NCBI RefSeq assembly: GCF_020880415.1
Contig: NZ_JAJIUJ010000115.1
Span: 1-64,000, forward strand
Reading direction: 5' to 3'
Length of the DNA stretch: 64,000 nt
DNA from: Xanthomonas euvesicatoria pv. euvesicatoria
Lineage (GTDB): Bacteria > Pseudomonadota > Gammaproteobacteria > Xanthomonadales > Xanthomonadaceae
Below the pieces are notes generated by a model. That model saw nothing but the letters and a program-made list of their open reading frames with translations. It was not told the DNA's origin and ran no database searches. Shown here piece after piece: positions 27,539 through 44,698 of this stretch (within the stretch, counting starts at the first letter, position 1; each line of letters begins with the position of its first letter). Position numbers and translations under genes: made by a program.

Positions 27539-27613
27539 GAGCGGCACGACAACGCGCCGGCTCCGCAATCTATTGCAGCCGGTGAGCACCGGCTCGCTGT
27601 TCCACGCCATGTG

Positions 27614-28254: not shown

Positions 28255-28263
28255 GGGAAATCC

Positions 28264-28827: not shown

Positions 28828-29486
28828 GTGCCCGATTCCTGGGTGGCGGCGGCGTCCGCAGGCGTGGGTGCGGCTTGCGGCTCGTGGGTCTCGTCGTCGG
28901 CGCGCCCTTCGCGCACGGCTTCGGCTTCGATGCGCAACTCCACGCTGTCGCCGATCATCGATTTCCAGGCATCAATCCCGAACTCGGAACGGCTCAGCGT
29001 GGCGGTGGCGGAGAAACCGGCCGTACGGCGGAACGGCGGGAGCGGATGGCGCTTGAGCGCGTTGAGGGTGACGTCCAGGGTAACCGGGCGGGTGACCCCG
29101 TGCAGGGTCAGGTTACCGCTGACCTTGGCGTGGTTTTCGCCGCTGGCCTCGACGTGCGTGGAGACGAAATGCGCGTCGGGAAAGCGCTCGGCGTCGAGTA
29201 GGTTGCGTGCCAGGGTGGCCTGGTTCCACTTGGCATCGCCCAGGTCTGCGCGGTGCAGCGGCACGGTGACATCCAGCCGGGCGGCGGCCCAGTCGTCCGG
29301 GTCGAAGACCAAGGTGCCGCTACTTCCGGAAACGGTGCCCAATGCCTTGGAAAAGCCGGCATGTTCCACCGCGAACAACACCCGGGTATGCACCGGATCC
29401 AGCGCATACCGCACAGGCGCAGCGGTGGCGGCGAGGCTGGTTGCAACCAGGGCAGAGGACACCAATAGGCGGGCGAGGATTGTCAT
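28824..29486 (-). CDS. YceI-family periplasmic protein (copy 2)
   Basis: A 220-residue secreted protein (signal peptide MTILARLLVSSALVATSLAA) with the YceI barrel: VRYALDPVHTRVLFAVEHAG, SGTLVFDPDDWAAARLDVTV, LDAERFPDAHFVSTHVEA and VTLDVTLN. The last 25 residues are Ala/Thr/Glu-rich and probably disordered, which copy 1 lacks. It is the first gene of the operon and overlaps the cytochrome gene by 4 nt. Two diverged YceI proteins flanking one b561 suggests they hand different lipids or act at different steps. Confidence 0.93.
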   Translation of the reverse strand: MTILARLLVSSALVATSLAATAAPVRYALDPVHTRVLFAVEHAGFSKALGTVSGSSGTLVFDPDDWAAARLDVTVPLHRADLGDAKWNQATLARNLLDAERFPDAHFVSTHVEASGENHAKVSGNLTLHGVTRPVTLDVTLNALKRHPLPPFRRTAGFSATATLSRSEFGIDAWKSMIGDSVELRIEAEAVREGRADDETHEPQAAPTPADAAATQESGT

Positions 29487-29582: not shown

Positions 29583-32500
29583 ATGCGTGTACTCATCGTG
29601 GTGCTGGCCGTGCTGTTGGCGATCTGGCCGTGCGCGGCAAAGATTCCGGAAGTGCCACGCTTTCGGATCGTGGGACCCAGCGAAGGATTGCCTTCGACGA
29701 TGGTGGTTGCCATCAGCCAGGATCGCGCCGGCTATCTATGGCTTGGAACGCTCGACGGTCTGGTGCGGTACGACGGCGCGGGCTTCAGGACCTGGCGGCA
29801 CGATCCGGCCGACCCCGGGTCGTTGCCCTGCAACGCGGTGCAGGCATTGCATATCGATGCGCTGGACCGGGTCTGGGTGGGCTGCGGCAAGACGCTGAGC
29901 GTGCTGGATGCCGGCCGCAGGCGCTTTGTTCACTATCGCGCTGCAGACTATCCATTGCTGAAGGACGGCGAGATCTTCAGCATCGCCGCATTCGATGGCG
30001 GCATCTGGGCCGGCACCACCACCGGTGCGCTGGTGCGCATCGGTGCCGACGGAGGAATGTCGTCGGTGAACCTGGGCGGGATCGAAGGCGCGCTGGATCA
30101 CGCCATGGTCATGAACCTGGCGGTGGACAACCAGCACCGCCTGTGGATCGGCACCAGCAATGGCCTGGCCTATTACGACGGCACGCAACTGCACCGCCAA
30201 TACGTCGCGGACGAGCCAAACCGGGAAGCGGCCATCTTCGGTTTGCAGTGGGCCGGGGACCGTTTGTGGCTGGGAAGCGAATCGGGATTGCACGTGCTGC
30301 GCGCCGACGGTCGCTGGCAGCCGCTTGCCTGGTCAACGATGTTCGGCAACGGTAATGAGTTCTGGGGCGCAGTCGCGACGCCGGATGGCGAATTCTGGCT
30401 GGGCAGCGGACGTGGTCTTTGGCGCACGCGCGGAGAGCGTCCACCGGTGCCCGCCCTGAGCGGGGAGGGGCCGCTGTCGCGTCGTAACGTGATCGGCTTG
30501 ATGGGGGCGGCCGATGGCGGCCTATGGGTGCCCATGCATGGCACCGGGCTTGGGTATCTGCCAGCCGACTGGAAACGCAGTGCCGTGCTCAAGCCCGCGG
30601 TGCCGATGGGCGATGCGATCTATTGCAACCTGGCGCCTGCCAAGCGCTCAGGGGGCTTATGGCAGGTCGATGCGCAGGGGCGTCTGTTGCGCGTGGATCC
30701 GAGCACCGGCGATTCGTTCCAGACAGGCCTGCAGTCGCCGCAGCTCAAAGGGATGGAGTTGGTGTCGGCATTGGAAGATCGCCTGCAACGGGTGTGGCTG
30801 GGGAATTTGACCTTTGGCCTTTCGCGGATGGACCTGCGTACCGGTGACTTCGTGCACTGGCCGTCCGATGGGCCCGAGCCGTCGTCGGCGTTGTCGGCGC
30901 CGGAATGGATCATGGAGCATGGCGACACCGTCTGGATGGCCTTCATCGACATGGTGCAGCAGCGCGATCTACGCACCGGCAAGGTCTTGCAGCGGATGAC
31001 CCAACAAGGCCTGCATGGCCTACGCGCGATCGACATCCAACAACTGGACCAGGGCCCCGACGGACGCGTCTGGGTGGCCGGCGAGGGCGGCATGTTCGCA
31101 TGGGACGACGCGACAAGCCGCTTCGTGCCGGTGGCAGGGCTTGAGGGGACGCCGATCCAGGCATTCGCCAGCCAGTCTGCGGACACACTTTGGGTATATC
31201 GCGCCTCCGGTGCAGAGCAGTGGCAAAAGCGCGCCGCCGGCTGGAAGCGCGTGCGTCAGGTAGGCGAAGCGGATGGACTGAGCGGGTTCGATGCCTCTGC
31301 CATGCAGATCGACCCGCGTGGCCGGGTCTGGATTTCCAGTCTGCGCGGGCTTTGGCGGATCGATCCCTCAGTGCATCCGGCGCGGGTCCGCAATATCGGC
31401 ACGCGCGATGGCCTCACCAGTCAGGAGTTCATCCAGCATTGCCTGTTGACCTCGGGCGACACCTTGATCGGGGCAACCAGCGATGGCTCTACCGTGCTGC
31501 TGGATACCGCAATGCCGGACGTTGCACCGTTCGTGCCGGCACTGCAATTGGAACACGTCAGCGTGCTGCGCAATGGCGCACGCATCGCCTTGCCGATGGA
31601 CCGCCCGTTCCAGCTGGGCCCGGAGGACCGCCAGCTGCAGATCGTCAGCCGCCTGCTGTCTTACAGCGACCCGCTGTCCAATCGGTATCGCAGCTTCCTG
31701 AAAGGCTTCGATACGGACTGGCAGACCATAGGCAACACCGGCATCCGCGAATTCGCCAGCCTGCCTGCCGGCAACTACGCGCTTGCGCTGCAGGGCATCG
31801 ACCCGCTGGGCAATCGCTCGCAGGTACGTTCGCTGCAGTTTTCGGTCAGGCCGCCCTGGTGGCGTAGCGAGATCGGGATTGCGGCGATTGGGTTTTCCGG
31901 ATTGCTGTTGAGCGCCTTGCTGGCCGCCGCATATCGGCGACGTATTCGCATGCGCGCGCAATGGCAGCTGGCGCAACACAAGCGCGAGTTGGCCGAGCAG
32001 GCATCGCTGGCCAAGACGCGCTTTCTGGCAACGTTGGGTCACGAGGTGCGCACGCCGATGACCGGTGTGCTGGGCATGAGCGAGTTGCTGCTGCAGACCC
32101 CATTGGATGGCCGTCAGCAAGGCTATGCAAGCGCGATCCAGCTGGCCGGCAAGCACCTGCTGCGTCTGGTCAACGATGCACTGGATCTGGCCCGGATCGA
32201 AGCGGGCAAATTGCCGCTGGATTACCGCGATTTCGATCTGCGCCAGTTGGTCGGCCAGGTGGTGGAACTAGTGCGCCCGAGTGCCGAGCAGAAGCAGCTG
32301 GCCTTCCAGTGCGAGCTCGACGAGGCATTGCCACCGGCATTGCATGGCGATGCCAGTCGCGTGCAGCAGATCCTGCTGAATCTGCTGTTCAATGCGGTCA
32401 AGTTCACCGAGCGCGGTAGCGTGCACCTGCGCCTTACCACGTTGCCGCAGTACACCCGGCAGGGTCTGCGCGTGGAAGTGCGCGACACCGGGCCGGGCAT

Positions 32501-33158
32501 GAGCGCCGAGCAGCGCGGACGGCTGTTCCAGCGGTTTGAACAGGCCGAAGGCGCGCTCACGCTGGCACGGCACGGCGGCAGTGGGCTGGGGCTGGCGATC
32601 TGCCGCGAACTTGCCGCGGCGATGGGCGGCGCGGTGACGGTCACCAGTGAATTGGGGCAGGGCGCGTGTTTTGTGGTCGAGCTGCCGTTGCACTGGGTGT
32701 CCACCTTGCCTGCGGTCACGCTGCCTGCAGTGCGCGCTCCGTCGCTGCGTGAGCAAGCGCCGTTGCAGCTGCTGCTGGTCGAGGACGATGCGACCGTGGC
32801 GCAGGTGATCGTGGGCCTGCTGCAGACGCGTGGGCATCACGTCACGCATGTGCTGCATGGTCTTGCCGCGCTGGCAGAGGTGAGCACGCGCAGTTTCGAT
32901 GCGGGATTGTGCGATCTGGATCTTCCCGGCCTCGATGGTGCGGCGCTGGTGGCGCAGTTGCGCGCGCGCGGTGTGCGCTTCCCGATCGTGGCCGTGACCG
33001 CACGTGCCGACACGGATGCCGAACCGCAGGCGATGGCCGCCGGCTGCAATGGCTTTCTGCGCAAACCGGTCACGGGCGATTTGCTGGCGCAGGCCTTGGC
33101 GCGGGTGCTTGCCGATGTCGATGATGGCCAGCGCGATCGCGAGGCCGGCGACGCGTAG
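29583..33158 (+). CDS. Hybrid sensor histidine kinase 1 (propeller, Y_Y_Y, HisKA, HATPase, receiver)
   Basis: A 1191-residue membrane hybrid kinase. The signal peptide MRVLIVVLAVLLAIWPCAAK is followed by periplasmic Reg_prop repeats (GYLWLGTLDGLVRYDG, DRVWVGCGK, HRLWIGTSNGLAYYDG and more) over about residues 30-690. A Y_Y_Y domain then leads to a membrane helix (IGIAAIGFSGLLLSALLAAAY). In the cytoplasm are HisKA with phospho-acceptor His820 (ATLGHEVRTPMTGVLGMSEL), HATPase (DTGPGMSAEQRGRLFQRFEQ, GGSGLGLAIC) and a receiver with Asp1111 (CDLDLPGLDG). No DNA-binding domain or HPt is present. It is preceded by AGGAAAGG at a good distance. First and one of the more diverged of four tandem paralogues. 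Confidence 0.95.
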   Translation: MRVLIVVLAVLLAIWPCAAKIPEVPRFRIVGPSEGLPSTMVVAISQDRAGYLWLGTLDGLVRYDGAGFRTWRHDPADPGSLPCNAVQALHIDALDRVWVGCGKTLSVLDAGRRRFVHYRAADYPLLKDGEIFSIAAFDGGIWAGTTTGALVRIGADGGMSSVNLGGIEGALDHAMVMNLAVDNQHRLWIGTSNGLAYYDGTQLHRQYVADEPNREAAIFGLQWAGDRLWLGSESGLHVLRADGRWQPLAWSTMFGNGNEFWGAVATPDGEFWLGSGRGLWRTRGERPPVPALSGEGPLSRRNVIGLMGAADGGLWVPMHGTGLGYLPADWKRSAVLKPAVPMGDAIYCNLAPAKRSGGLWQVDAQGRLLRVDPSTGDSFQTGLQSPQLKGMELVSALEDRLQRVWLGNLTFGLSRMDLRTGDFVHWPSDGPEPSSALSAPEWIMEHGDTVWMAFIDMVQQRDLRTGKVLQRMTQQGLHGLRAIDIQQLDQGPDGRVWVAGEGGMFAWDDATSRFVPVAGLEGTPIQAFASQSADTLWVYRASGAEQWQKRAAGWKRVRQVGEADGLSGFDASAMQIDPRGRVWISSLRGLWRIDPSVHPARVRNIGTRDGLTSQEFIQHCLLTSGDTLIGATSDGSTVLLDTAMPDVAPFVPALQLEHVSVLRNGARIALPMDRPFQLGPEDRQLQIVSRLLSYSDPLSNRYRSFLKGFDTDWQTIGNTGIREFASLPAGNYALALQGIDPLGNRSQVRSLQFSVRPPWWRSEIGIAAIGFSGLLLSALLAAAYRRRIRMRAQWQLAQHKRELAEQASLAKTRFLATLGHEVRTPMTGVLGMSELLLQTPLDGRQQGYASAIQLAGKHLLRLVNDALDLARIEAGKLPLDYRDFDLRQLVGQVVELVRPSAEQKQLAFQCELDEALPPALHGDASRVQQILLNLLFNAVKFTERGSVHLRLTTLPQYTRQGLRVEVRDTGPGMSAEQRGRLFQRFEQAEGALTLARHGGSGLGLAICRELAAAMGGAVTVTSELGQGACFVVELPLHWVSTLPAVTLPAVRAPSLREQAPLQLLLVEDDATVAQVIVGLLQTRGHHVTHVLHGLAALAEVSTRSFDAGLCDLDLPGLDGAALVAQLRARGVRFPIVAVTARADTDAEPQAMAAGCNGFLRKPVTGDLLAQALARVLADVDDGQRDREAGDA

Positions 33159-33453
33159 GTCCAGGTGCAAGCCAGGCGAGGACGCGACAGCAGCCTCGCG
33201 CCGGCGCTGTCTTGGTTCCATGGCAGACAGCAAACCGGCAGTGCGTTCGCCACGACCAGTGCCATGCGCAGCAGATACCTGCTGCACTGGCCGGCCAAGC
33301 ATTTGGTCGCATGCCGGGTCAGTCGCAGCGGGCAGCAGAACGGCAACTCGGCCAGGGAGCGAGCCAGTTCCTGGGACCAAGAACTGCGGCGTAGCGGGTA
33401 AAGTGCAGTCCCAACAAGGAACGCCGGGCGCACACGCGGCGATGGGGACACGG
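33159..33453 (+). other. Spacer between hybrid kinases 1 and 2
   Basis: A 295-nt gap with no terminator or conserved gene. No clear copy of the TTGCC-N17-CACTAT promoter found before kinases 3 and 4 is visible here. Confidence 0.5.
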
Positions 33454-36400
33454 ATGACGATGAAGAACGTGCTGATGTCGGTGCTGGCCGTGCTCTTGCT
33501 GCTGAGCGGGCTGGATGCGGCGGCGGTGAATCAGATCGAGACCCCGCGCATGCGCCGCTTCGGTAGTGCCGAAGGCCTGCCTTCGCGCATGGTGCTGGCC
33601 TTGGCCCAGGATCGGCAAGGCTATGTCTGGGCGGCGACCAGCGATGGCCTTGCGCGCTATGACGGCATCGGTTTGCAGGTATGGCAGCACGATCCGCATG
33701 TCGCCAGTTCGATTCCGGGCAACGAAGTGGAAACGCTGTTGGTCGATGATCGCGACCGGATATGGGTTGGCATCAACGGCTCGCCACCGAGCATGCTGGA
33801 TGCGGCGCGCTCGGCGTTTACGACATTTCCCGACGTTGGCAGCGCATGCGATGGGCAGGTCTGGGCACTGGCCCAGGCACAAGATGCGATCTGGGTAGGA
33901 ACCAGCAGCGCCGGGCTGTGCCGGCGCGAAGAAAATGGTCGGGTGACGGCGTTCCGTGCCACACCGTATGCGGCGGACGGACTGCCCAGCAACACCATCA
34001 TGAGCCTGCTGACCGATGCGCGCGGCCGGCTATGGATCGGCACCGACAGCGGGTTGGTGATGCGCGACGGCGAGCGCTTCGTGCGCATCGCGCCAGACCG
34101 ACTGAGCACGACGGTTTTCAAGCTCAGCAAGGATGCCGACGGTACGGTGTGGGTCGGGACCAGCAATGGCTTGTACAGGGTGACGCCTGCTGGTGCGCTG
34201 GAACGCGCGCCCTGGAGCGGGGCCGATGCCCTGCGTGCCGCGACCGTGGTACACGATGTGCACGGTGGCTACTGGATTGGTGCAGCCGACGGATTTTTCC
34301 GGGTGGCGCCGGGAGAAACCGCGCTGCGCCTGATGGAAGGCGATCGCGGCAGCGGCTTCCTCACCGCACATAGCGGCGTGCTCGATGTGATGCAGGACCG
34401 GCAGGGCGGGCTATGGCTCGGACTGATTTCGCAGGGCGTGGCGTATTTGCCGCCGGACTGGCGGCGGTTCTCCACCATTTTCCAGACCCAGGGCAAGCCG
34501 CTGGAGAGCCTGTATCTGGTCAACGCTGTGGCCGATGGCGACAGCTTTCTGGTGACGACCGGCGAAGGCGTCTACCGGCTCGGCAATGACGGTGAGCTGG
34601 TGCCGGTCCTGCATAGCGACGCATTGGGCGGCGGCACCGTGCAGTCGGTGCTGCCGGCCGGCGGCGGCAGTTTGTGGATCGCGCTGCGCGATGGCGTGAC
34701 GCGCTATACCCCGGAGACCGGCCAGCAGCAGAAGCTCGCAATGCAGATCGGTGTTTCCGCAACGCATCGGGTGGAACTGATGACACCCGGCATCGATGGC
34801 GAATTCTGGGTTTCGATCGTGGAAGGTGGCGTACAGCGACGTGCCGCGGATGGACGGCTGCTGGCCACGTTCCGCTTCGGCACCGATCTCAGTGAAGTCG
34901 GCGGCATGGTGCAGCAACTGACGGTGCGGCCGGATGGCACCGCCTGGGTCGCAGCCGGGGATGGTGTGTGGGTCTGGCAGGGCGAACGCTTTCGCGCAGT
35001 GATCGAGGACGCCAATCATGAAGTCTATGCGCTGGCCTTCGTGTCGCCGCGCGAGTTCTGGGTTGGGCGTTCCGGTGCGCTGGAACGTTACGGCTGGGAC
35101 GGGCGGCAGGCGCGCCTGCTGGAGCGGGTCGGGCACGAACACGGCCTGCCTCCTACCGAGATACGCGGCCTGGCGCTGGGCGGCGACGACACGGTCTGGG
35201 CCACCACCTCGCGGGGCCTGTACGCCTACAGGCGCGGCCAGCCGCAGGTCCGCCGGTTCGGTCCACGCGACGGCCTGCCAGATAGCGAGTTTTCGATGCG
35301 TCCGCCGGCGATTGGTCCCAACGGCCAGGTGCTGGCGCTGACGACCAGCGGCATCGTGTTGTTCGATCCGTCGCGGCCATTTGCGCCTGCGCCGCTGGCC
35401 CGCCTGGTGATCGAATCGGTGCAGGTGCGGCGCAACGATGCCGAGCGCCCGCAGACGGTTGCCCACAACGCGCCGGTGATCCTGCAGGCGCGCGATCGCG
35501 ATCTGCGCATCAGCGCACGGCTGTTGTCGTTTGTCGATCCGGCCTCCGCGCATTACCGCTACCGTGTCAATGGCTACGACGAACGCTGGGTGGAGCAGGG
35601 TGCCAGCGGCGAGCGCGTGATCTCGCGATTGCCGCCTGGCGACTACCGCATCGAGGTCCAGGCGCGTGCCGGCGATGGCGATTGGGTCGCTGCGCCGGTG
35701 TTGCAACTGGAGGTGCGGCCGCCGTGGTGGTTGAGCACGGCCGCGCAGTTGGCGGCGGCAGCGCTCTGCATGCTGCTGCTGTACTTAAGTGTTTGGGCCT
35801 GGCGAAAGCGCGTGCGGCGGCAGCAGGAGTGGGTGCTGACACAGCAGCGGCAACAGCTGGCCGAGCAGGCATCGATCGCCAAATCGCATTTCCTGGCGAC
35901 GCTTGGCCACGAAGTGCGTACACCCATGACCGGCGTGCTGGGCATGAGCGAGTTGCTGCTGGCCACGCCGCTGAATGCCAAGCAGCGCGGGTATGTCGAT
36001 GCGATCTGCAAGGCCGGCACGCATCTGCTGCGCTTGGTCAACGATGCACTGGATCTGGCACGCATCGAGGCCGGCAAGCTGGAGTTGGTACAGCAGCCCT
36101 TCGATCCCGCGCAGCTCACCCAGGAACTGGCCGATTTCATGCATCCCATCGCTGACGCGCGCGGCCTGCGCTTGGAGTACCGCAATCAGCTTCCCCCGCA
36201 TGTGGTGGTCGTGGGCGATGCAACGCGGGTGCGTCAGATCCTGATCAACCTGCTGGGCAATGCGATCAAGTTTGCCGAACGCGGCGAGGTGTCGCTCACC
36301 GTCAGCCAGCACGGCGATGCCCTGCGCTTCAAGGTGCGCGATACGGGTCCTGGCATCGGGTCGGAACAGCAGAAGCGACTGTTCCAGCGCTTCGAACAAG

Positions 36401-36987
36401 GCGAGGGCGCGCGCACCAGTTCGCGCTACGGCGGCAGCGGGCTTGGGCTGGCGATCTGCCAGGAACTCACCGTGGCGATGAAGGGCCGAATCCGCGTGCG
36501 CAGCCGGCTTGGCGTCGGCACCCAGTTCACCGTGGATCTGCCCTTGCCGATCGACCGCTCCGGCACACGTATCGCCACCGGCCAGGTGCAGGTGCCTGCA
36601 GGCGAGCCGCTGCGCATCCTGCTGGTGGAAGACGACCCGACCGTGGCGGAGGTGATCAGCGGCTTGTTGACCAATCGAGGTCACCGCGTGGTGCATGCCG
36701 CGCATGGGCTGGCTGCATTGTCGGAAACGGTGGATGGCAGGTTCGACATCGCGCTGCTGGATCTGGATCTCCCCGGGCTGGACGGCTTTGCCCTGGCATC
36801 GCAGCTGCGCCAGCTTGGCCATCGCTTCCCGCTGCTGGCAGTCACGGCACGCGCTGACAGCGCCGCGCAGACCCAGGCCAAGGCCGCAGGTTTCGACGGA
36901 TTCCTGCGCAAACCGGTCACTGCCGATCTGCTGGTGGAAGCGATTACGGCTGCGCGCGCAGCCGCCGGCATGCAGGCCGCGACCTAG
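33454..36987 (+). CDS. Hybrid sensor histidine kinase 2
   Basis: A 1177-residue paralogue of kinase 1 with the same layout: signal peptide (MTMKNVLMSVLAVLLLLSGL), propeller repeats (GYVWAATSDGLARYDG, GRLWIGTDSGLVMRDG, GTVWVGTSNGLYRV, GGLWLGLISQGVAYLP), Y_Y_Y region (PASAHYRYRVNGYDERWVEQ), membrane helix (LAAAALCMLLLYLSVWAW), HisKA His819 (ATLGHEVRTPMTG), HATPase (DTGPGIGSEQQKRLFQRFEQ) and receiver Asp1103 (LDLDLPGLDGF). ATG 33454 is chosen because a GGGGA ribosome site lies 5 nt before it. ATG 33460 and 33442 are alternatives. The frame is open into kinase 1, which is shadow. Confidence 0.94.
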   Translation: MTMKNVLMSVLAVLLLLSGLDAAAVNQIETPRMRRFGSAEGLPSRMVLALAQDRQGYVWAATSDGLARYDGIGLQVWQHDPHVASSIPGNEVETLLVDDRDRIWVGINGSPPSMLDAARSAFTTFPDVGSACDGQVWALAQAQDAIWVGTSSAGLCRREENGRVTAFRATPYAADGLPSNTIMSLLTDARGRLWIGTDSGLVMRDGERFVRIAPDRLSTTVFKLSKDADGTVWVGTSNGLYRVTPAGALERAPWSGADALRAATVVHDVHGGYWIGAADGFFRVAPGETALRLMEGDRGSGFLTAHSGVLDVMQDRQGGLWLGLISQGVAYLPPDWRRFSTIFQTQGKPLESLYLVNAVADGDSFLVTTGEGVYRLGNDGELVPVLHSDALGGGTVQSVLPAGGGSLWIALRDGVTRYTPETGQQQKLAMQIGVSATHRVELMTPGIDGEFWVSIVEGGVQRRAADGRLLATFRFGTDLSEVGGMVQQLTVRPDGTAWVAAGDGVWVWQGERFRAVIEDANHEVYALAFVSPREFWVGRSGALERYGWDGRQARLLERVGHEHGLPPTEIRGLALGGDDTVWATTSRGLYAYRRGQPQVRRFGPRDGLPDSEFSMRPPAIGPNGQVLALTTSGIVLFDPSRPFAPAPLARLVIESVQVRRNDAERPQTVAHNAPVILQARDRDLRISARLLSFVDPASAHYRYRVNGYDERWVEQGASGERVISRLPPGDYRIEVQARAGDGDWVAAPVLQLEVRPPWWLSTAAQLAAAALCMLLLYLSVWAWRKRVRRQQEWVLTQQRQQLAEQASIAKSHFLATLGHEVRTPMTGVLGMSELLLATPLNAKQRGYVDAICKAGTHLLRLVNDALDLARIEAGKLELVQQPFDPAQLTQELADFMHPIADARGLRLEYRNQLPPHVVVVGDATRVRQILINLLGNAIKFAERGEVSLTVSQHGDALRFKVRDTGPGIGSEQQKRLFQRFEQGEGARTSSRYGGSGLGLAICQELTVAMKGRIRVRSRLGVGTQFTVDLPLPIDRSGTRIATGQVQVPAGEPLRILLVEDDPTVAEVISGLLTNRGHRVVHAAHGLAALSETVDGRFDIALLDLDLPGLDGFALASQLRQLGHRFPLLAVTARADSAAQTQAKAAGFDGFLRKPVTADLLVEAITAARAAAGMQAAT

Positions 36988-37106
36988 CGTGGGTGCACGG
37001 CCCCGATGCGTTGACGATGCCGGTGCTCATCGGGCATCGCATCGCGTAAAGACGGCCGTACGATGCCTGCCTGCTGTAACGATCACCGTTGGCGCGCTTC
37101 TGTGTG

Positions 37107-37135
37107 TTGCCAGCATCAGGCAAGGTCCGCACTAT
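37107..37135 (+). promoter_or_regulatory. Promoter of hybrid kinase 3
   Basis: TTGCCA (37107-37112), a 17-bp spacer and CACTAT (37130-37135). The 12 bases CCGCACTATGCG recur exactly before kinase 4 in the same promoter position. Confidence 0.55.
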
Positions 37136-37158
37136 GCGTGCAAAGGACACGCGAGCGC

Positions 37159-40100
37159 ATGCTGCTACCACCACAACACCCCAGTCGTCGCATGCCGCTG
37201 AAAGCCTTGATGACGCGGGCTTTATTACTGCTTTGCCTGGCCGTCGTGTCAGGCTGGCCGAGTCTTACGCTGGCCGGCGTGCCGGTACTGCCGCAGCCGC
37301 GGCAGCTGACCGTGGCCGACGGGCTGCCATCCAACGTGGTGTACGGCTTCGATGAGGATGCCAATGGATATTTGTGGCTGGCCAGCAGCGATGGGTTAGC
37401 GCGTTACGACGGGCGAAACTTCCGTATCTGGCGCATCGAAGACGGTTTGCGCGACAACCAGATCTGGGCGGTTCACGTCGACAAGCGCAACCGGGTCTGG
37501 ATCGGGACCGGCATGGCAGGCCTTGCGATGCTGGACCCCGCACGCCATCAATTCACTTTCTATGATGGTGCGCGCTATCCGGAACTTCGCGGCGCTGCGA
37601 TCTGGAACATCAAGTCTACCGACGACGGCAGCATATGGTTCGGCACTGAAATGAGTGGGCTATACCGGCTGCGGCCGGATGGTTCGCTGGAGCATTTCGC
37701 ACATCGTGTCGACGATCCGCGCAGCTTGCCCGACAACGCGATCTATCGGCTTGATGTCGATACCCGCGGCACACTTTGGATCGGTACCGCCGATGGTGCT
37801 GCGCATTGGACGGGTAATGACTTCGAGCGGCAGGCATTTCCGGATGGCACCGCACAGATCATCACCCGGCTAACTGCCGATGCCGATGGCAGCATCTGGA
37901 TCGGGACCAGCGACGACAAGCTGTTTCGGCGCGATCCAAGTGGTCATCTCAGTCCGCACCGTTGGCAGGCACCTGCAGAATATCCGGTATTGGGCGTGTT
38001 GTTGCGCGACCAGGACGGCAGCTATTGGCTGGACACCCTGGCCGGCCTAGGCCATACGACTGGTGCGGAGGTGCGCAATGTCCCCCTGTACAGTCTGTCT
38101 GCGCACGGGCGTATCCGTCCCAACTGGGAATCGGCATATCAGGATCGCGAGGGCGGTGTATGGTTTGCCAGCCCCAACGGCGGGCTCTGGCATCTCCCCT
38201 CGAACTGGCATCGTTTCGCGGTAGTTTTCAACTACATGGACGACGGTGGCCAAGGTGGCAACCTGGCGATCCAGGGCACTGCAAAATCGCGCGATGGTCG
38301 GATGTGGTTGGTGGGCACCTCGGGCGTGCTCGAACGCGTAGATCCTGCCACCGGCAAAATCGAGCGTGTATTGCCCACCCTGGGGTCTGCCAGCTGGTCC
38401 AATAGCGTGCTGGAGGATCGCAAGGGTAACGTCTGGGTCGGGCAGTTTGCCGAGCTGGTGCGCTTTGATCCCGCTACTGGCCAGGTGCAGCACTGGAAGG
38501 CTGCAGCAAGCGGCTCGGACGCGGCTGCACAGGACGCGACACTGGACGCTTCCTTGGAAGCGCTGCAGCAGACCGCCGATGGTCACATCTGGGTCCATGC
38601 CACGCTTGGGCTACAAGAGCGGGACGAACAAGGTCGCTTGCTGCGCACCATGTTGCGCGGGACCCACGGCCTTGCAGCAGATCTGGTGGTTTACGACCTG
38701 CAGGCTGGGCCGGACGGAGCGCTCTGGCTGGCCAGTAATCGTGGTCTGCAGCGCTGGAACGCGTCGGTTGCGCGCTTCGAGCGCATTGCCGGCGCACCCG
38801 ACGAACCTATCTTCACTTTTCGCTTCAGCGACAACCAGATCGCCTGGTTTGCCGGGCTAGGGAAGCTCCGCCGCTATTTGTGGAAGAACGGCACCCTGCA
38901 ACATCTAGATACAGTGGGCCCCGAGCAGAACTTCCCTGCGCTTGCGCCACAGGGACTGGTGATCGACCACGACGGTGTTGCCTGGATGTCCAGTATGCGT
39001 GGCCTGATTCGCGTTGACCCGGCCACGCGGGGCGTGCGCGTGTTCGGGGTTCATGACGGCCTGCCCAATCCGCAATTCGTTGCGCGTTCTTTGGTGCAAT
39101 CGTCAAAGGGCATGATCGTCGGCGCGACGCCGGATGGGCTGGTGATCTTCGATCCTGCCGAACTCAAGCCGAATGATCATCGGGTGCCGTTGGTGATCGA
39201 ACGTGTGGGTCTACGTCGCGGCGAGAGCGGGCTGGATCTGAGTCATGTCACGCCTTTGGTCATGCAGGACGGCGACCGCGACTTGCATATCGTCGCCCGC
39301 CTGCTCAGCTTCGCCGACTCCGAATCCAATAGCTACCGCTTCCGCCTGAGCGGCTACGACCCGGACTGGATCGATGTCGGGCCCAGTGGCGAGCGCCTGT
39401 TTTCGCGTCTGCCTTCAGGCCGTTACACGCTGGAAGTGCAGGGGCGCACTGCAGACGGGATCTGGTCGGCGAGCCAGACCTTGCGTTTTCAGGTGTTGCC
39501 GCCATGGTGGCTGTCGCCGTGGGGCTTGAGCCTGCTGGCCCTGCTGACCGTGTGCGTGATTGCTGCAGCTATCTTGTTGTACCGCCGTCGGTTGCGTCGC
39601 TTGAATGCCTGGCAGCTTGCGGTGCACAAACAGGAAGTGGCCGAGCAGGCGTCCCTGGCCAAGACGCGTTTTTTGGCGACCCTGGGCCACGAAGTGCGTA
39701 CGCCGATGACGGGCGTCTTGGGCATGAGTGAGCTGCTGCTCAAGACTTCGCTGGATCTCAAACAGCGCAGTTACACCGAGTCGATCCGCCGCGCAGGCGC
39801 GCATTTGTTGCGGCTGGTCAACGATGCGCTGGATCTTGCGCGCATCGAATCCGGGCGGCTGGAGCTGGATGTGGAGCCGTTTTCGGTGCGTCAGCTGGTG
39901 GCCGAAGTGGAGGCGTTGATGGCGCCGCTGGCGCAGGAGCGTGGCCTGCGCTTCAGCCTGGAGATCGGGCTGCTCGGCGATATCACTGCCAGTGGCGATT
40001 GCACCCGCATCCGGCAGATCCTGCTCAACCTGCTCAATAACGCGATCAAATTCACCGAGCGCGGCGTGGTCGGGTTGAAGTTGACCACGCTCGGTTCCTA

Positions 40101-40761
40101 TCAAGGCCTGCGCTTTGAAGTGGCCGACACGGGGCCGGGCATCAACGCCGAACAGAAGGCGCGGCTGTTCCAGCGCTTCGAGCAGGGCGATGGTGCCAGA
40201 ACCACCTCGCGCTACGGCGGCAGTGGTCTGGGCTTGGCGATCTGCCAGGAGCTGGCAATCGCCATGGGCGGGCAGATCGAGGTGATCAGCCGACTCGGTG
40301 CGGGGACGCGCTTCGTGGTGGATCTGCCGCTGCGCTGGGTGGCTTCCAACGCCGCGCTCGGTGGCGAGACCGCGCATGCCGAGACGGCTGTCGAGCCGCA
40401 GCGCATCCTGCTGGTGGAAGACGACCCGACCATCGCCGAGGTCATCGTCGGCCTGCTGCAAGCGCAAGGGCATTCGGTCGTGCATGCCCCGCATGGCCTG
40501 GCGGCGCTGACCGAAGCGGCCGACAACACGTTCGATCTGGCATTGCTGGATCTGGACCTGCCCGGGCTGGATGGTTTTGCGCTGGCGCGGCAGTTGCGCG
40601 TCTTCGGCTACGACATGCCGTTGATCGCCGTGACTGCACGCGCCGACGAGGTCGCCGAACCAAGCGCGCAGGAAGCCGGCTTCGACAGCTTCCTACGCAA
40701 GCCGCTCACTGGCGACATGCTGGCCGCCACCATTGCCGAAGCGTTACGCAGCAAGCGCTGA
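37159..40761 (+). CDS. Hybrid sensor histidine kinase 3
   Basis: A 1200-residue paralogue. Signal-anchor region MTRALLLLCLAVVSGWPSLT, propeller repeats (GYLWLASSDGLARYDG, NRVWIGTGMAGLAML, GSIWFGTEMSGLYRL, GTLWIGTADGAAHW), Y_Y_Y (SNSYRFRLSGYDPDWIDVG), membrane helix (LSLLALLTVCVIAAAILLY), HisKA His844, HATPase (DTGPGINAEQKARLFQRFEQ) and receiver Asp1131 (LDLDLPGLDGFALARQ). ATG 37159 has AAAGGA upstream and sits 24 nt past the -10 box. ATG 37192 would give a shorter signal peptide and is possible. Its output half is almost identical to kinase 4 while the sensor half is clearly different. Confidence 0.94.
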   Translation: MLLPPQHPSRRMPLKALMTRALLLLCLAVVSGWPSLTLAGVPVLPQPRQLTVADGLPSNVVYGFDEDANGYLWLASSDGLARYDGRNFRIWRIEDGLRDNQIWAVHVDKRNRVWIGTGMAGLAMLDPARHQFTFYDGARYPELRGAAIWNIKSTDDGSIWFGTEMSGLYRLRPDGSLEHFAHRVDDPRSLPDNAIYRLDVDTRGTLWIGTADGAAHWTGNDFERQAFPDGTAQIITRLTADADGSIWIGTSDDKLFRRDPSGHLSPHRWQAPAEYPVLGVLLRDQDGSYWLDTLAGLGHTTGAEVRNVPLYSLSAHGRIRPNWESAYQDREGGVWFASPNGGLWHLPSNWHRFAVVFNYMDDGGQGGNLAIQGTAKSRDGRMWLVGTSGVLERVDPATGKIERVLPTLGSASWSNSVLEDRKGNVWVGQFAELVRFDPATGQVQHWKAAASGSDAAAQDATLDASLEALQQTADGHIWVHATLGLQERDEQGRLLRTMLRGTHGLAADLVVYDLQAGPDGALWLASNRGLQRWNASVARFERIAGAPDEPIFTFRFSDNQIAWFAGLGKLRRYLWKNGTLQHLDTVGPEQNFPALAPQGLVIDHDGVAWMSSMRGLIRVDPATRGVRVFGVHDGLPNPQFVARSLVQSSKGMIVGATPDGLVIFDPAELKPNDHRVPLVIERVGLRRGESGLDLSHVTPLVMQDGDRDLHIVARLLSFADSESNSYRFRLSGYDPDWIDVGPSGERLFSRLPSGRYTLEVQGRTADGIWSASQTLRFQVLPPWWLSPWGLSLLALLTVCVIAAAILLYRRRLRRLNAWQLAVHKQEVAEQASLAKTRFLATLGHEVRTPMTGVLGMSELLLKTSLDLKQRSYTESIRRAGAHLLRLVNDALDLARIESGRLELDVEPFSVRQLVAEVEALMAPLAQERGLRFSLEIGLLGDITASGDCTRIRQILLNLLNNAIKFTERGVVGLKLTTLGSYQGLRFEVADTGPGINAEQKARLFQRFEQGDGARTTSRYGGSGLGLAICQELAIAMGGQIEVISRLGAGTRFVVDLPLRWVASNAALGGETAHAETAVEPQRILLVEDDPTIAEVIVGLLQAQGHSVVHAPHGLAALTEAADNTFDLALLDLDLPGLDGFALARQLRVFGYDMPLIAVTARADEVAEPSAQEAGFDSFLRKPLTGDMLAATIAEALRSKR

Positions 40762-41113
40762 CAAGCGCTGCGGATGCTCTGTCACCGGAGCAGGCATCCA
40801 AGTATCACGCGGCGTGTTCGTCCGCTCTTGGGCCGCTCGAACAGCGATGCGGGTCGCGATGGTCTGGCCAGGCGGAAGGGCGCTGCAGGTGCCCTGCCAC
40901 CCGGGGCGCGGCAAGCGGTTGCGTCGCAAGCAAGTGTCGGCGGAAAGAATTGTCGGGCCCGCTTTTCGCAAGCCCTGCAACGTGCAACGGACTGACCAAT
41001 GACGCTGCCGCGGGCGCCTTGCAGCCTGAGCGCGTGCGCACAACGGGCAGAGCGCGCTTGCCCGCACCGCGCGTGGCCCGCACTATGCGCCGACTTGTCG
41101 TGAAGTTGATCCG
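40762..41113 (+). other. Spacer between hybrid kinases 3 and 4
   Basis: A 352-nt gap. It carries the kinase 4 promoter at 41058-41086. The rest shows no gene, terminator or repeat that I can support. Confidence 0.5.
41058..41086 (+). promoter_or_regulatory. Promoter of hybrid kinase 4
   Basis: TTGCCC (41058-41063), a 17-bp spacer and CACTAT (41081-41086), matching the kinase 3 promoter in boxes and spacing. The leader would be about 21 nt. Confidence 0.55.
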
Positions 41114-44100
41114 GTGCGCTTTCTATCCTGCTTGCCCCATCGGCTGCTCGCTGTGCTCTGGGTATGCCTGTGTCTGGCAGTGTTTCCGGTGCAGGCGCGG
41201 ACGCCCGCAACACCGGTGCCCATCCAGCTGACGATCGCCGACGGGCTGCCGTCGGACACGATCAATCAGTTGGCCGAGGACAGACAGGGATATCTGTGGC
41301 TTGCCAGCGATGACGGCCTGGCCAGATTCGATGGCCGCAACTACCGGATCTGGCGGATGGAAGATGGCCTGACCAGCAACGTGGTCTGGACCATCTGTGT
41401 CGATGCCAACGATCGGGTGTGGATGGGCTTCGAGGACGGCGGCGTCGGCTATCTGGAAGCGAACACGCGCACGTTCAAACGACTGGAAGATCCGCAATTC
41501 CCCGAACTGCGCGACGCCACCCTGTGGTCGTTGGCACAAACGCCGGACGGGGATATCTGGATCGGCACCGCCAAGCAGGGCCTCTATCGTTATCGCCCCG
41601 ACGGGCGCATGCAGCACTTTTCTGCCAAGGCGGGCGATGCCGCTAGCTTGCCGTCCGACAATATCGTTGGTCTGGAAGTCGCGCCCGACGGCGGCCTGTG
41701 GATCGGCACCTGGGGCGGGCTTGTGCACTGGGATGGTCGGCGCCTGGAGCGCGTGCCGCTTCCGGGCCCGTCCCAGTCGGTCAACCGAATGTACAAGGAG
41801 CCCGACGGCAAGGTGCTCTGGGTTGCCGATTTCGACGGCAACCCCGTCCAGTTCAACACGGTCGGGCGGCCCATGGCCCGCCGCTGGCAAAGCGGTGAGG
41901 ACACCGCGCAGGTCCGGGGCGTCCTGCTCCGTGACCGGCTCGGGCGCTACTGGCTGGATACCGCCACCGGCCTGGGCATGAGTTCCAGCGACGGTGGCGT
42001 CGAACGCGTGCCGGTCTACAGTTTTTCAGCGCACGGTCTGGTCAACCGGAACTGGATCACCGCCTACCAGGACCGCGAAGGAGGTCTGTGGTTCGCCAGC
42101 CTGGAGGGCGGGTTGTGGCACCTGCCTCCGCGCTGGGACACCTTCGCGTTGTTTTCGCATCGCGCAGATGTTCCGCAATCGCTCGCCAATCCCTCGGTCG
42201 TTGCCACAGCGCCTTCGGTCACCGGCGGCATCTGGCTGGTCGGCACGCGTGGAACGCTTGAGCATTTCGATCCCGTCACCGGCCGCGTGGAGCCACGCCT
42301 GGCCCCGGTCGATCCGGAACGCATTCCCGATACGGTCATCGAAAGCAGGCAGGGAATGGTCTGGATCGGCGTGCAGGAACGGCTGGTTCGGTACAACCCG
42401 AAGACGGGCGAGGCCAGGCGTTGGCCACTGCTCGGGCACCAGGATTCCGCAGCCGATCTCGAAGATGTCGGCAGGCCTGGCAGGATGGCCGAAGATGCAC
42501 AGGGGCGCATCTGGGTGGCGCTGCTGACGCACGGGGTGCAGCTGTGGAGCAGCGAGGGCCAGCTGCTCAGGACGCTCGACTACGGAAGCCACGGGCTGAA
42601 GGCGCTGACGGTCCTGGACATGCGGATCGGGCCGGATGGGCAGATCTGGCTGAGCAACAATGCCGGGCTGTGGCGATGGGATCCGCTTGCCGACCAGTTC
42701 GTTCCGGTACGCGGCGCGCCGTCCCTGCCAACCTATGTGTTTCGCCAGGGAGATGGCGGCATCGTCTGGATCGGATTGGCCGGACAATTGCGGCGCTATC
42801 TCTGGGACGGCAAGCAGCTTACGCATCTGGATACGCTGGGAAAGGACCAGGAATTTCCGATGGTCTCGCCGACCGGCCTGGTGATCGATGCCGGTGGCGT
42901 GGCCTGGGTCTCCAGTCATCGTGGGCTGATCCGGGTCGACCCCGGCAGCAAGCTGGTGCGCGTGTACGACGTGCACGACGGACTTCCCAGTTCGCCCATG
43001 CAGGTGGCCACGCTGGTGCAGGCAAGCACGGGGCAGATCCTGGGCGGCACATCCGATGGCATCGTGGTGTTCGATCCGGCCACGATGCGTCCGAATCTGC
43101 GCCGACCGCAGCTGTTGATCGAACGTGTCAGCCTGCGACGCGGCGAGCGCGAACTGGATGTCACCGGCAAGGCGCCGCTGCAGGTGCAGGACGGCGATCG
43201 CGACCTGCATATCGTGGCGCGGATGCCCACGTTCACCAATCCCGAATCCACCAGTTACCGCTTCCGCCTCAGTGGCTACGATCCGGACTGGGTCGACGTG
43301 GGCTCCACCGGCGAACGCCTGTTTTCGCGCCTGCCTTCCGGGCATTACACGCTGGAAGTGCAGGGGCGCACGGCAGATGGCATCTGGTCGGCCAGCCAGA
43401 TCGTCCGTTTCCAGGTATTGCCGCCGTGGTGGCTGTCACCGTGGGGTCTGGGCCTGTTGGCGGTGCTGAGCGTGTGCGTGATCGCCGCGGCCATCTTGTT
43501 GTATCGCCGTCGGCTGCGGCGCCTGAATGCCTGGCAGCTGGCCGTGCACAAACAGGAGCTGGCCGAACAGGCGTCCTTGGCCAAGACCCGGTTTCTGGCG
43601 ACGCTGGGCCATGAAGTGCGCACGCCGATGACGGGTGTGTTGGGCATGAGCGAATTGCTGCTCAAGACCACGCAGGACGCCACGCAGCGCAGCTACACCG
43701 AGTCGATCCGTCGTGCGGGTGCGCATCTGTTGCGGCTGGTCAACGATGCGCTGGATCTGGCGCGCATCGAATCGGGCCGGCTTGAACTGGATTTCCAGCC
43801 ATTTTCGGTGCGTCAGCTCGTGGCCGAAGTCGAAGCGCTGATGGCGCCATTGGCGCAAGAGCGCGGGTTGCGCTTCAGCCTGGAGATCGGGCTGCTGGGC
43901 GACATCACCGCCAGCGGTGATTCCACCCGTATCCGGCAGATCCTGCTCAACCTGCTCAATAACGCGATCAAATTCACCGAGCGCGGCGTGGTCGCGCTGA
44001 AGCTGACCACGCTCGGTTCCTATCAAGGCCTGCGCTTCGAGGTTGCCGACACGGGCCCGGGCATCAATGCCGAACAGAAGGCGCGATTGTTCCAGCGCTT

Positions 44101-44698
44101 CGAGCAGGGCGACGGTGCCAAGACCACCTCACGTTATGGCGGCAGTGGCCTGGGCCTGGCCATCTGTCAGGAGCTGGCGATGGCGATGGGTGGGCATATC
44201 GAGGTGATCAGCCGGCTCGGCGCCGGGACGCGCTTTGTGGTGGATCTGCCGCTGCGCTGGGTGGCGTCGGATGCAACGCTGGACGGCGAGGTGGCACATG
44301 CCGCCAGCCCCATCGAGCCGCAGCGCATCCTGCTGGTGGAAGACGACCCGACCATCGCCGAGGTCATCATCGGCCTGCTGCGCGCGCAGGGGCACTCGGT
44401 GGTGCATGCGCCGCATGGGCTGGCGGCGTTGACCGAAGCGGCCGACAACACGTTCGATCTGGCATTGCTGGATCTGGACCTGCCCGGGCTGGATGGTTTT
44501 GCGTTGGCGCGGCAGTTGCGCGTCTTCGGCTACGAGATGCCGTTGATCGCGGTGACCGCACGCTCCGATGAAGCCGCCGAACCGAACGCGCAGGAAGCGG
44601 GTTTCGACCGTTTCCTGCGCAAGCCGCTCACCGGCGAGATGTTGGCCAATACCATCGCCGAAGCGTTGCGGCATGCCCGCGCGCGCGATGGGGCGTAG
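41114..44698 (+). CDS. Hybrid sensor histidine kinase 4
   Basis: A 1194-residue paralogue starting at GTG 41114 (RFLSCLPHRLLAVLWVCLCL signal sequence, cleaved after VQA). Propeller repeats include GYLWLASDDGLARFDG, DRVWMGFEDGGVGYLE, GDIWIGTAKQGLYRYR and GGLWIGTWGGLVHWDG. Y_Y_Y (STSYRFRLSGYDPDWVDVG), a membrane helix, HisKA His833 (ATLGHEVRTPMTG), HATPase and receiver Asp1120 follow. No DNA-binding or HPt domain is present. The last 480 codons are very close to kinase 3 at DNA level, including long identical runs in the HATPase and receiver parts. The gene ends 34 nt from the convergent efflux gene. Confidence 0.95.
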   Translation: MRFLSCLPHRLLAVLWVCLCLAVFPVQARTPATPVPIQLTIADGLPSDTINQLAEDRQGYLWLASDDGLARFDGRNYRIWRMEDGLTSNVVWTICVDANDRVWMGFEDGGVGYLEANTRTFKRLEDPQFPELRDATLWSLAQTPDGDIWIGTAKQGLYRYRPDGRMQHFSAKAGDAASLPSDNIVGLEVAPDGGLWIGTWGGLVHWDGRRLERVPLPGPSQSVNRMYKEPDGKVLWVADFDGNPVQFNTVGRPMARRWQSGEDTAQVRGVLLRDRLGRYWLDTATGLGMSSSDGGVERVPVYSFSAHGLVNRNWITAYQDREGGLWFASLEGGLWHLPPRWDTFALFSHRADVPQSLANPSVVATAPSVTGGIWLVGTRGTLEHFDPVTGRVEPRLAPVDPERIPDTVIESRQGMVWIGVQERLVRYNPKTGEARRWPLLGHQDSAADLEDVGRPGRMAEDAQGRIWVALLTHGVQLWSSEGQLLRTLDYGSHGLKALTVLDMRIGPDGQIWLSNNAGLWRWDPLADQFVPVRGAPSLPTYVFRQGDGGIVWIGLAGQLRRYLWDGKQLTHLDTLGKDQEFPMVSPTGLVIDAGGVAWVSSHRGLIRVDPGSKLVRVYDVHDGLPSSPMQVATLVQASTGQILGGTSDGIVVFDPATMRPNLRRPQLLIERVSLRRGERELDVTGKAPLQVQDGDRDLHIVARMPTFTNPESTSYRFRLSGYDPDWVDVGSTGERLFSRLPSGHYTLEVQGRTADGIWSASQIVRFQVLPPWWLSPWGLGLLAVLSVCVIAAAILLYRRRLRRLNAWQLAVHKQELAEQASLAKTRFLATLGHEVRTPMTGVLGMSELLLKTTQDATQRSYTESIRRAGAHLLRLVNDALDLARIESGRLELDFQPFSVRQLVAEVEALMAPLAQERGLRFSLEIGLLGDITASGDSTRIRQILLNLLNNAIKFTERGVVALKLTTLGSYQGLRFEVADTGPGINAEQKARLFQRFEQGDGAKTTSRYGGSGLGLAICQELAMAMGGHIEVISRLGAGTRFVVDLPLRWVASDATLDGEVAHAASPIEPQRILLVEDDPTIAEVIIGLLRAQGHSVVHAPHGLAALTEAADNTFDLALLDLDLPGLDGFALARQLRVFGYEMPLIAVTARSDEAAEPNAQEAGFDRFLRKPLTGEMLANTIAEALRHARARDGA

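What the first reader, a model, noticed from the sequence alone, without database searches (positions are those of the whole stretch)
29583..44698. Tandem array of four hybrid histidine kinases with a shared domain plan
Four consecutive genes of about 3.5-3.6 kb encode proteins with the same domain order: signal peptide, beta-propeller repeats, Y_Y_Y, one helix, HisKA, HATPase, receiver. Each has its phospho-His and receiver Asp. The sensors differ strongly, so the array may read four related ligands and feed one pathway. All four lack HPt and DNA-binding domains, which sets them apart from the Bacteroides-type one-gene hybrids and means a partner elsewhere must complete the phosphorelay.
Basis: partly seen in the sequence, partly recalled or inferred. 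Interest (0 to 1): 0.72.

Follow-up and report, generated by a model that had tools for sequence, protein, structure and literature searches.

The report
Receptor kinase array with exchangeable sensors
Four neighbouring receptor genes in a Xanthomonas genome share one signalling half but carry very different outer sensing halves, and comparison with related species indicates that the sensing halves have been exchanged by recombination several times while the signalling half stayed the same.

Summary
Four tandem hybrid histidine kinases (HK1-HK4) share propeller/Y_Y_Y/HisKA/HATPase/REC architecture and intact phospho-His and Asp, with no HPt or HTH match. The window is from Xanthomonas. The locus is old: YceI-b561-YceI / kinase(s) / hemE is shared across the family, with one kinase in Pseudoxanthomonas and Silanimonas, two in 9 of 10 Stenotrophomonas loci, and mostly two to four in Xanthomonas. 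Slot 1 carries one of two sensor types (about 45% identical), never both, in 35 of 35 genomes. Sensor type needs 1 change on the sensor tree but 5 on the transmitter tree and 5 on the upstream-flank tree (AU p 2.5e-5 and 0.008). Slots 3 and 4 behave alike, C/C' and D/D' sensors sharing one transmitter type. Breakpoints fall around Y_Y_Y/TM. Three other hybrid kinases of the genus show no such split. Best reading: a recombining receptor array with exchangeable input and homogenised output, probably one phosphorelay. A REC-HPt protein is the only free HPt found. Partner and ligand are inferred, not shown.

The parts
29583..33158 (+). HK1 (slot 1), hybrid histidine kinase, sensor type A1, transmitter type tA
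33454..36987 (+). HK2 (slot 2), hybrid histidine kinase, sensor type B, transmitter tB
37192..40761 (+). HK3 (slot 3), hybrid histidine kinase, sensor type C, transmitter tCD
41114..44698 (+). HK4 (slot 4), hybrid histidine kinase, sensor type D, transmitter tCD
31659..31847 (+). Y_Y_Y domain of HK1
35530..35712 (+). Y_Y_Y domain of HK2
39310..39498 (+). Y_Y_Y domain of HK3
43232..43417 (+). Y_Y_Y domain of HK4; the sensor/transmitter exchange border lies around here and the transmembrane helix
32010..32207 (+). HisKA of HK1
35878..36075 (+). HisKA of HK2
39658..39855 (+). HisKA of HK3
43580..43777 (+). HisKA of HK4
32772..33098 (+). receiver (REC) of HK1
36616..36945 (+). receiver (REC) of HK2
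40405..40734 (+). receiver (REC) of HK3
44327..44656 (+). receiver (REC) of HK4
39265..40761 (+). HK3 half of the homogenised HK3/HK4 tract (approximate start)
   Evidence: 55% nucleotide identity before and 86% after the change-point
43187..44698 (+). HK4 half of the homogenised HK3/HK4 tract (change-point at HK4 residue about 692)
27685..29486 (-). YceI / cytochrome b561 / YceI genes, divergent from HK1; conserved neighbours of the kinase locus
25829..27610 (-). L-serine dehydratase gene, flank conserved in most family loci
44733..46202 (-). MFS transporter, downstream flank in Xanthomonas and Stenotrophomonas loci
46517..47581 (-). hemE (uroporphyrinogen decarboxylase), conserved downstream flank

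Best explanation
This is an ancient single-copy propeller-type hybrid kinase of the Lysobacterales that was duplicated in tandem at its home locus in Xanthomonadaceae and became a recombining receptor array in Xanthomonas. Recombination with one border around Y_Y_Y/TM repeatedly replaces the periplasmic sensor of a slot by an alternative, anciently diverged sensor type (A1/A2, C/C', D/D'), while the cytoplasmic HisKA-HATPase-REC part stays with the species and, in slots 3 and 4, is homogenised between paralogues. Each sensor, probably two seven-bladed propellers plus Y_Y_Y as in glycan-sensing BT4663, would bind its ligand in the periplasm and switch an almost interchangeable transmitter. His-to-Asp transfer inside the hybrid would feed a shared partner in trans; the best candidate is the REC-HPt protein, the only free HPt carrier found in the genome. 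Shown: architecture, catalytic residues, conserved locus, sensor/transmitter recombination, homogenised transmitters, purifying selection. Inferred: that sensor types are alleles rather than lost paralogues, ligand class, shared output, REC-HPt as partner.
For: Architecture and residues: (His 130 of 130, Asp 130 of 130). Same locus family-wide. Slot 1 has exactly one A-type sensor in 35 of 35 genomes, 23 A1-like (77-100% identity to the window's) and 12 A2-like (44-48%). Slot-1 sensor tree 1 change, transmitter tree 5 changes, all 5 forced by starred branches, AU p 2.5e-5, lnL 382 worse (31 labelled genes). The upstream YceI-side flank independently needs 5 changes (4 forced), AU p 0.0077. Close species pairs: sensors 45-47% and transmitters 89-98% identical in 5 of 5 chosen pairs. 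The unalignable block lies inside the gene in the three A1/A2 species pairs compared. Slots 3/4: four sensor clades need 11 changes on the transmitter tree (minimum 3); AU p 2e-7, 2e-9, 2e-7 and 2e-54 for C, C', D' and D. In 17 chosen pairs change-points fall at HK4 residues 688-805, around Y_Y_Y (707-768) and TM. Synonymous sites change with the break, so constraint on the kinase alone cannot explain it. In X. floridensis HK3/HK4, nucleotide identity is 55% before residue 557, 70% from there to 714 and 98% after. Three other hybrid kinases of the genus show no split: sensor/transmitter correlation 0.87-0.91, largest ratio 2.1 among pairs with transmitter distance over 0.05, against correlation 0.38 for slot 1. 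dN/dS is at most 0.41 in all windows of types A1, B and D. Sensor fold: BT4663, TM up to 0.77. One free HPt carrier among 11 HPt matches.
Against: No phosphotransfer, ligand or phenotype data. Transmitters tA, tB and tCD are only 57-63% identical to each other and no sensor was seen across these three classes, so three outputs rather than one remain possible. REC-HPt co-occurrence outside the genus is imperfect: both 7, array only 4, REC-HPt only 1, neither 14, of 26 (Fisher p 0.003, not corrected for relatedness, detection near threshold). No HPt was found beside the homologues; other receiver genes lie 5.5-6.8 kb from the kinase in 7 of 38 stretches scanned (L105, L113, L122, L123, L125, L187, L190) and were not followed up. 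Many members are broken in some genomes, so not every slot is needed everywhere; some breaks may be assembly errors (G027 also has broken control genes). Sensor-type labels were set after the first trees, so AU p-values are conditional on that. The D' sensor clade has only 82% support.
Confidence: 0.66

Rival explanations
1. Ancient tandem paralogues with differential loss. The ancestor carried A1 and A2 (and C/C', D/D') side by side; each lineage kept one, and gene conversion made the surviving transmitters follow the species. No sensor ever moved between species.
For: Within each slot-1 type, sensor distances track transmitter distances (Mantel r 0.81 for A1, 0.88 for A2), so both types look old in every clade. 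Copy number varies and remnants of lost members are visible.
Against: 0 of 35 genomes hold both A1 and A2, and none of the Xanthomonas genomes tabulated (some only in part, where contigs break) holds both C and C' or both D and D'. In the three pairs compared the unalignable block is internal to the gene, with the first 90-100 codons, upstream flank and transmitter all aligning. This would need about five independent reciprocal losses, each leaving a spliced gene.
Confidence: 0.25
2. Ordinary tandem duplication with relaxed constraint on sensors and strong purifying selection on kinase domains, without recombination.
For: Kinase domains are generally more conserved than sensors; HK1, HK2 and HK3/4 transmitters are 57-63% identical.
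Against: Synonymous and third-position identity jumps at the same border, tree incongruence is strong, and the upstream flank agrees with the transmitter, not the sensor.
Confidence: 0.05
3. Four parallel kinases with separate outputs, or receivers acting as phosphate sinks or inhibitors, so the array is not one pathway.
For: Three distinct transmitter classes never exchange sensors across classes in the table. No HPt was found next to the homologues scanned, and receiver genes lie no nearer than 5.5 kb. Xanthomonas is known to use non-cognate pairings: in PMC7036368 HpaS co-opts the orphan regulator VemR (title and start of abstract seen in the listing).
Against: The receiver Asp is conserved in 130 of 130 and the second acidic residue is D or E in 129 of 130, which favours working phosphotransfer. 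HK3 and HK4 transmitters are kept nearly identical.
Confidence: 0.3

Closest known systems
Bacteroides hybrid two-component systems (HTCS) such as BT4663 and BT3049
   Same: Periplasmic double propeller plus Y_Y_Y sensor (Foldseek TM up to 0.77 by query length to 4a2l/4a2m; hmmsearch E 7e-98 for 4a2l and 1e-99 for 3v9f) followed by HisKA-HATPase-REC. The propeller sensors of four HTCS bind linear oligosaccharides (PMC3243724, passages read).
   Different: No C-terminal DNA-binding domain; tandem array with exchangeable sensors; no glycan-degrading enzyme among the 30 window proteins scanned (not every ORF was scanned). The third HTCS sensor structure, BT4673, superposes poorly (TM 0.43-0.44).
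ComC/ComD pherotypes of Streptococcus (and, from memory, AgrC groups of Staphylococcus)
   Same: A histidine kinase whose sensor exists as alternative alleles of which a genome normally carries one; trans-species polymorphism is discussed, judged unlikely for S. pneumoniae but supported between S. mitis and S. pseudopneumoniae (PMC5629823, passages read).
   Different: ComD answers a secreted peptide that varies with it. Here the sensor is a 700-residue propeller, no neighbouring signal gene was identified (small ORFs were not searched), several slots vary, and variation within a species could not be tested.
GacS multikinase network of Pseudomonas
   Same: Several hybrid kinases with related transmitter and receiver domains that may feed one output; receiver swaps work when domains share ancestry (PMC8175716, abstract read).
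   Different: Those chimaeras are engineered and exchange receivers; here sensors are exchanged in nature and the kinases form a tandem array.
Reg_prop/Y_Y_Y proteins GdpX2 and GdpX3 of X. oryzae
   Same: Same sensor domains in the same genus (PMC6637768, passages read).
   Different: They are listed among c-di-GMP (GGDEF/EAL/HD-GYP) proteins, not kinases.

Membership tests
Hybrid histidine kinase (HisKA-HATPase-REC) | Pfam HisKA, HATPase_c and Response_reg over cut-off in one protein | tested here: met
   4 of 4 proteins
Hybrid histidine kinase (HisKA-HATPase-REC) | phospho-accepting His and receiver Asp present | tested here: met
   130 of 130 full-length members
Hybrid histidine kinase (HisKA-HATPase-REC) | autophosphorylation and transfer to REC | not testable with these tools
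   needs biochemistry
Bacteroides-type HTCS | double-propeller plus Y_Y_Y periplasmic sensor | tested here: met
   (structure modelled for HK4 only)
Bacteroides-type HTCS | C-terminal DNA-binding domain in the same polypeptide | tested here: not met
   none in 4 of 4; proteins end after REC
Unorthodox (HK-REC-HPt) kinase | C-terminal HPt domain | tested here: not met
   at E<=1; none of the 11 HPt matches of the genome lies in the array
Receptor-kinase allele polymorphism of the ComD/AgrC kind | alternative, mutually exclusive sensor alleles on a common transmitter | tested here: met
   across species
Receptor-kinase allele polymorphism of the ComD/AgrC kind | alternative alleles segregating within one species | not testable with these tools
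   one genome per species is held
Receptor-kinase allele polymorphism of the ComD/AgrC kind | linked gene for the cognate signal | not tested
   nearest neighbours with Pfam hits are YceI, b561, SDH, MFS and hemE; small ORFs were not examined

The most novel reading that the evidence does not exclude
The slots carry balanced, trans-species sensor alleles. A1/A2, C/C' and D/D' are older than the Xanthomonas species that bear them, are mutually exclusive at each slot, and assort between slots (all four A-by-C and all four A-by-D combinations occur). This would make the array a combinatorial recognition locus, comparable to pherotype or self-recognition loci, kept diverse by selection for rare or niche-specific sensor combinations.
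Probability: 0.35. Interest if true: 0.82.

Novelty: new variant of a known kind. Interest (0 to 1): 0.62.

Why it matters
Sensor swapping between histidine kinases is usually inferred across deep time or engineered (my general knowledge). Here is a natural series in one genus: same locus, same transmitter, alternative sensors of some 600-700 residues with five inferred changes in slot 1, mapped borders around Y_Y_Y/TM and a clean slot-2 control. It gives natural chimaeras for asking how a propeller sensor couples to a kinase, which ligands distinguish A1 from A2, and whether selection keeps alternative receptors in a bacterial genus. It also makes the output question concrete: one free HPt carrier, three transmitter classes.

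Tried and rejected
Neighbour-gene approach to the partner: 38 stretches with homologues (two of them, L107 and L167, from one genome; 9 order-level) were scanned by tblastn with receiver and REC-HPt queries. No HPt was found beside the kinase; receiver genes lie 5.5-6.8 kb away in 7 of 38 and were not followed up. The one apparent REC-HPt extension (L188) ran through a stop into a stretch opposite another gene and was rejected. Ortholog co-occurrence as partner evidence is weak. Positive selection inside sensors: dN/dS never exceeds 0.41 in types A1 (9 sequences), B (8) and D (7), so an arms-race reading within a type is not supported. Naming by NCBIfam gave kinase matches that were all below cut-off among the 25 shown per protein. 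Broken members were not used as strong evidence of decay: G027 also has control kinases in pieces, so its breaks may be assembly errors.

Literature: ten searches listed no paper that, by title and start of abstract, describes this array or natural sensor exchange in it; most subscription papers are not held. In one search passages were read that turned out irrelevant (propeller as flagellum). PMC11678079 (passage) mentions one propeller protein unique to one X. oryzae strain; whether it belongs here was not tested. In PMC8895600 the words recombination and pherotype do not occur in the main text.

Rows dropped. Trees used only open frames covering at least about 1090 residues of the query at 400 bits or more (130 rows); broken or contig-cut members were left out, as were named loci that duplicate G genomes (among them L093, L098, L103, L107) and L125. 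One search labelled 31 of 35 genomes: cissicola, populi and bromi were left out as contig-cut or not in one frame, and maliensis (A2-like) stood unlabelled. One search used 37 frames; maliensis was left out. The control used 30 of 35, 30 of 35 and 28 of 32 genomes with a match (loci are capped at 30). In the control from L192 the first 140 or so residues of the query frame are matched in only about 7 of the 35 genomes; the first 160 were left out, and I did not test whether they are coding.
Full report
What is there. The four genes are real and match the coordinates given. HK1 to HK4 (29583-33158, 33454-36987, 37192-40761, 41114-44698, all +) encode proteins of 1,191, 1,177, 1,189 and 1,194 residues from the likely starts, with signal peptide, Reg_prop repeats, Y_Y_Y, a membrane helix, HisKA, HATPase_c and a C-terminal receiver (helix modelled in HK4). 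No HPt and no DNA-binding family is listed at E<=1. The catalytic His and receiver Asp are intact here and in 130 of 130 full-length relatives. Neighbours are ordinary: L-serine dehydratase, YceI, cytochrome b561 and YceI on the other strand upstream; an MFS transporter and hemE downstream.

Where it lives. Named best matches are Xanthomonas (X. cissicola, X. axonopodis and X. phaseoli at 96% for HK4). Relatives at E<=1e-100 occur in 35 of 35 Xanthomonas genomes, 2 of 2 same-family and 9 of 24 same-order genomes. The locus is a positional orthologue. Of 27 named family loci examined, YceI-b561-YceI lies upstream in 24 and the other 3 do not reach that far; hemE lies downstream in 26 and the other one ends before it. 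L-serine dehydratase is found upstream in most that reach; L114 lacks it and L107 has only a fragment. The MFS gene is seen in Xanthomonas and Stenotrophomonas loci but not in the Pseudoxanthomonas, Silanimonas and Lysobacter loci. At order level YceI/b561 is near the kinase in 4 of 9 loci (L184, L186, L188, L191) and hemE in 4 of 9 (L186, L187, L188, L190); L183, L185 and L189 have neither. One kinase stands there in Pseudoxanthomonas and Silanimonas, two in 9 of 10 Stenotrophomonas loci (L106 shows four), and mostly two to four in Xanthomonas. So this is an in-place tandem expansion, not scattered insertions.

The new observation. In the window HK3 and HK4 are 46.5% identical in the sensor but 92.5% in the transmitter. 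Third-position identity rises from 0.30-0.48 over the propeller part to 0.62-0.85 from residue 730 on, so recombination, not only constraint on the kinase, made the transmitters alike. Across the genus the same picture appears at slot 1. Every one of 35 genomes has exactly one slot-1 sensor: 23 like the window's (A1, 77-100% identity) and 12 of a different type (A2, 44-48%); none has both. Yet transmitters of A1 and A2 genes are about as similar to each other (mean distance 0.188) as within types (0.172, 0.148), while sensors are 0.66 apart. In five close species pairs chosen for the purpose sensors are 45-47% and transmitters 89-98% identical.

Tree tests. On 31 labelled slot-1 genes the sensor tree needs one change of type. 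The transmitter tree needs five, all forced by well-supported branches, and holding A2 together costs 382 log units (AU p 2.5e-5). A tree of the DNA upstream of HK1 (YceI side), wholly outside the kinase, also needs five changes, four of them forced (AU p 0.0077). For slots 3 and 4, four sensor clades (C, C', D, D') are each one side of a branch on the sensor tree (D' with only 82% support), but need 6, 3, 6 and 5 changes on the transmitter tree (4, 2, 6 and 4 forced). Each is rejected as a clade there (AU p 2e-7, 2e-9, 2e-54, 2e-7). In X. floridensis the HK3 and HK4 transmitters are 98% identical in nucleotides under sensors that are not, a recent conversion. The labels were chosen after the first trees, so p-values are conditional on that.

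Where the border is. In 17 chosen pairs, change-points of slot-1 exchanges lie at HK4 residues 760-791, of the pairs involving C or C' at 688-720, and of D/D' exchanges at 797-805. Y_Y_Y spans 707-768 and the transmembrane helix starts near 776. The unalignable slot-1 block (about 1.4-1.7 kb) is internal to the gene in the three A1/A2 pairs compared; the first 90-100 codons still align. The exchanged unit is therefore most of the propeller sensor.

Controls. Slot 2 (B) shows no second type and its sensor distances track its transmitter distances (Mantel r 0.90, 15 genes). Three other hybrid kinases of the genus, 30, 30 and 28 sequences, show sensor/transmitter correlations of 0.91, 0.87 and 0.89 and no pair with a ratio above 2.1 where the transmitter distance exceeds 0.05 (one control without the first 160 residues of its frame); all slot-1 genes together give 0.38. 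All 40-codon windows of types A1, B and D have dN/dS of 0.41 or less, so the sensors are working parts under constraint, not drifting remains.

Pattern of types. Within A1 and within A2, sensor distances follow transmitter distances (Mantel r 0.81, 0.88; C 0.90, D' 0.96), but less well in D (0.49) and C' (0.48, p 0.08, six rows). Both slot-1 types are thus old in each clade, which looks like trans-species polymorphism, very old exchange, or old paralogues with loss, rather than recent random transfer. Types assort between slots. In one search's table, broken members included, I count A1 with C 10, A1 with C' 5, A2 with C 5, A2 with C' 4; A1 with D 11, A1 with D' 8, A2 with D 6, A2 with D' 3; C with D' once (LMG 31884) and C' with D' never. 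Where sensor and transmitter lie in one frame, A sensors sit on tA, B on tB, C/C'/D/D' on tCD, without exception.

How it probably works. The AlphaFold2 sensor model (pLDDT 88.9, 39-sequence alignment) matches BT4663, named in its entry as the heparin/heparan-sulphate sensor (TM up to 0.77), and BT3049 (0.73); BT4673 superposes poorly. Propeller sensors of four Bacteroides HTCS bind oligosaccharides (PMC3243724). A periplasmic glycan or glycan-like ligand is the default guess. With the receiver as last domain, output must leave in trans. The genome has 11 HPt matches: three in frames of CheA size, four in one 2,428-residue frame, three in other hybrid kinases, and one in a 240-residue REC-HPt protein at C17:125589-126311 (the CheA reading is by size and recall). 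That REC-HPt protein is in 34 of 35 Xanthomonas genomes (the miss is 81% complete) and in 8 of 26 others; outside the genus it co-occurs with the array only loosely. It is a candidate, not a demonstrated partner. Receiver genes 5.5-6.8 kb away in 7 of 38 homologous stretches are unexamined alternatives. The divergent YceI-b561-YceI genes are among the most constant neighbours and the first place to look for a regulated target; that too is inference.

Verdict. Sensor/transmitter recombination on a conserved or homogenised transmitter is the robust finding; the shared phosphorelay is plausible; ligands are unknown. It is a new variant of known kinds (propeller hybrid kinases; allele-polymorphic receptor kinases such as ComD, PMC5629823). 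I found no description in print in ten searches, within the limits of that library.

Noticed in passing
L152 (G022) and L164 (G032): The slot-1 gene (A1 on tA) lies apart from the rest of the array in these two genomes (about 1.7-1.9 Mb away by contig coordinates), in one open frame: a rearrangement split the array.
   Followed up: no
window 44737-46167 against L137: Window and X. cissicola are 98.5-99.2% identical across the array, but identity falls to 89.9% in the MFS gene just downstream, suggesting a recombination border at the 3' end of the array.
   Followed up: no
HK4 residues 231-310 and 391-430 (window about 41804-42043 and 42284-42403): Fastest-evolving patches of the D sensor (dN/dS 0.32-0.41); the first holds a low-confidence loop of the model (260-262), the second lies a little before another (443-446); possible ligand-facing loops.
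   Followed up: partly
L137, L171, L145, L149, L155, L143, L173, L163, L139, L147: Broken or remnant array members occur in several genomes (HK3 in cissicola and axonopodis, HK2 in populi, arboricola NL_P126 and others). Some could be assembly errors.
   Followed up: partly
L106 3157-9830 (Stenotrophomonas sp. Ste86): Two extra, highly diverged array members (31-35% to HK3) between the usual two, giving four kinases outside Xanthomonas.
   Followed up: no
L105, L113, L122, L123, L125, L187, L190: A receiver-domain hit lies 5.5-6.8 kb from the kinase (in L105, L122 and L123 with a second kinase hit nearby), four of the seven in Pseudoxanthomonas; relation to the array unknown.
   Followed up: no
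own genome C79, C19, C70, C58: Seven further Y_Y_Y proteins in frames of 1,006-1,111 residues outside the array; outputs not determined.
   Followed up: no
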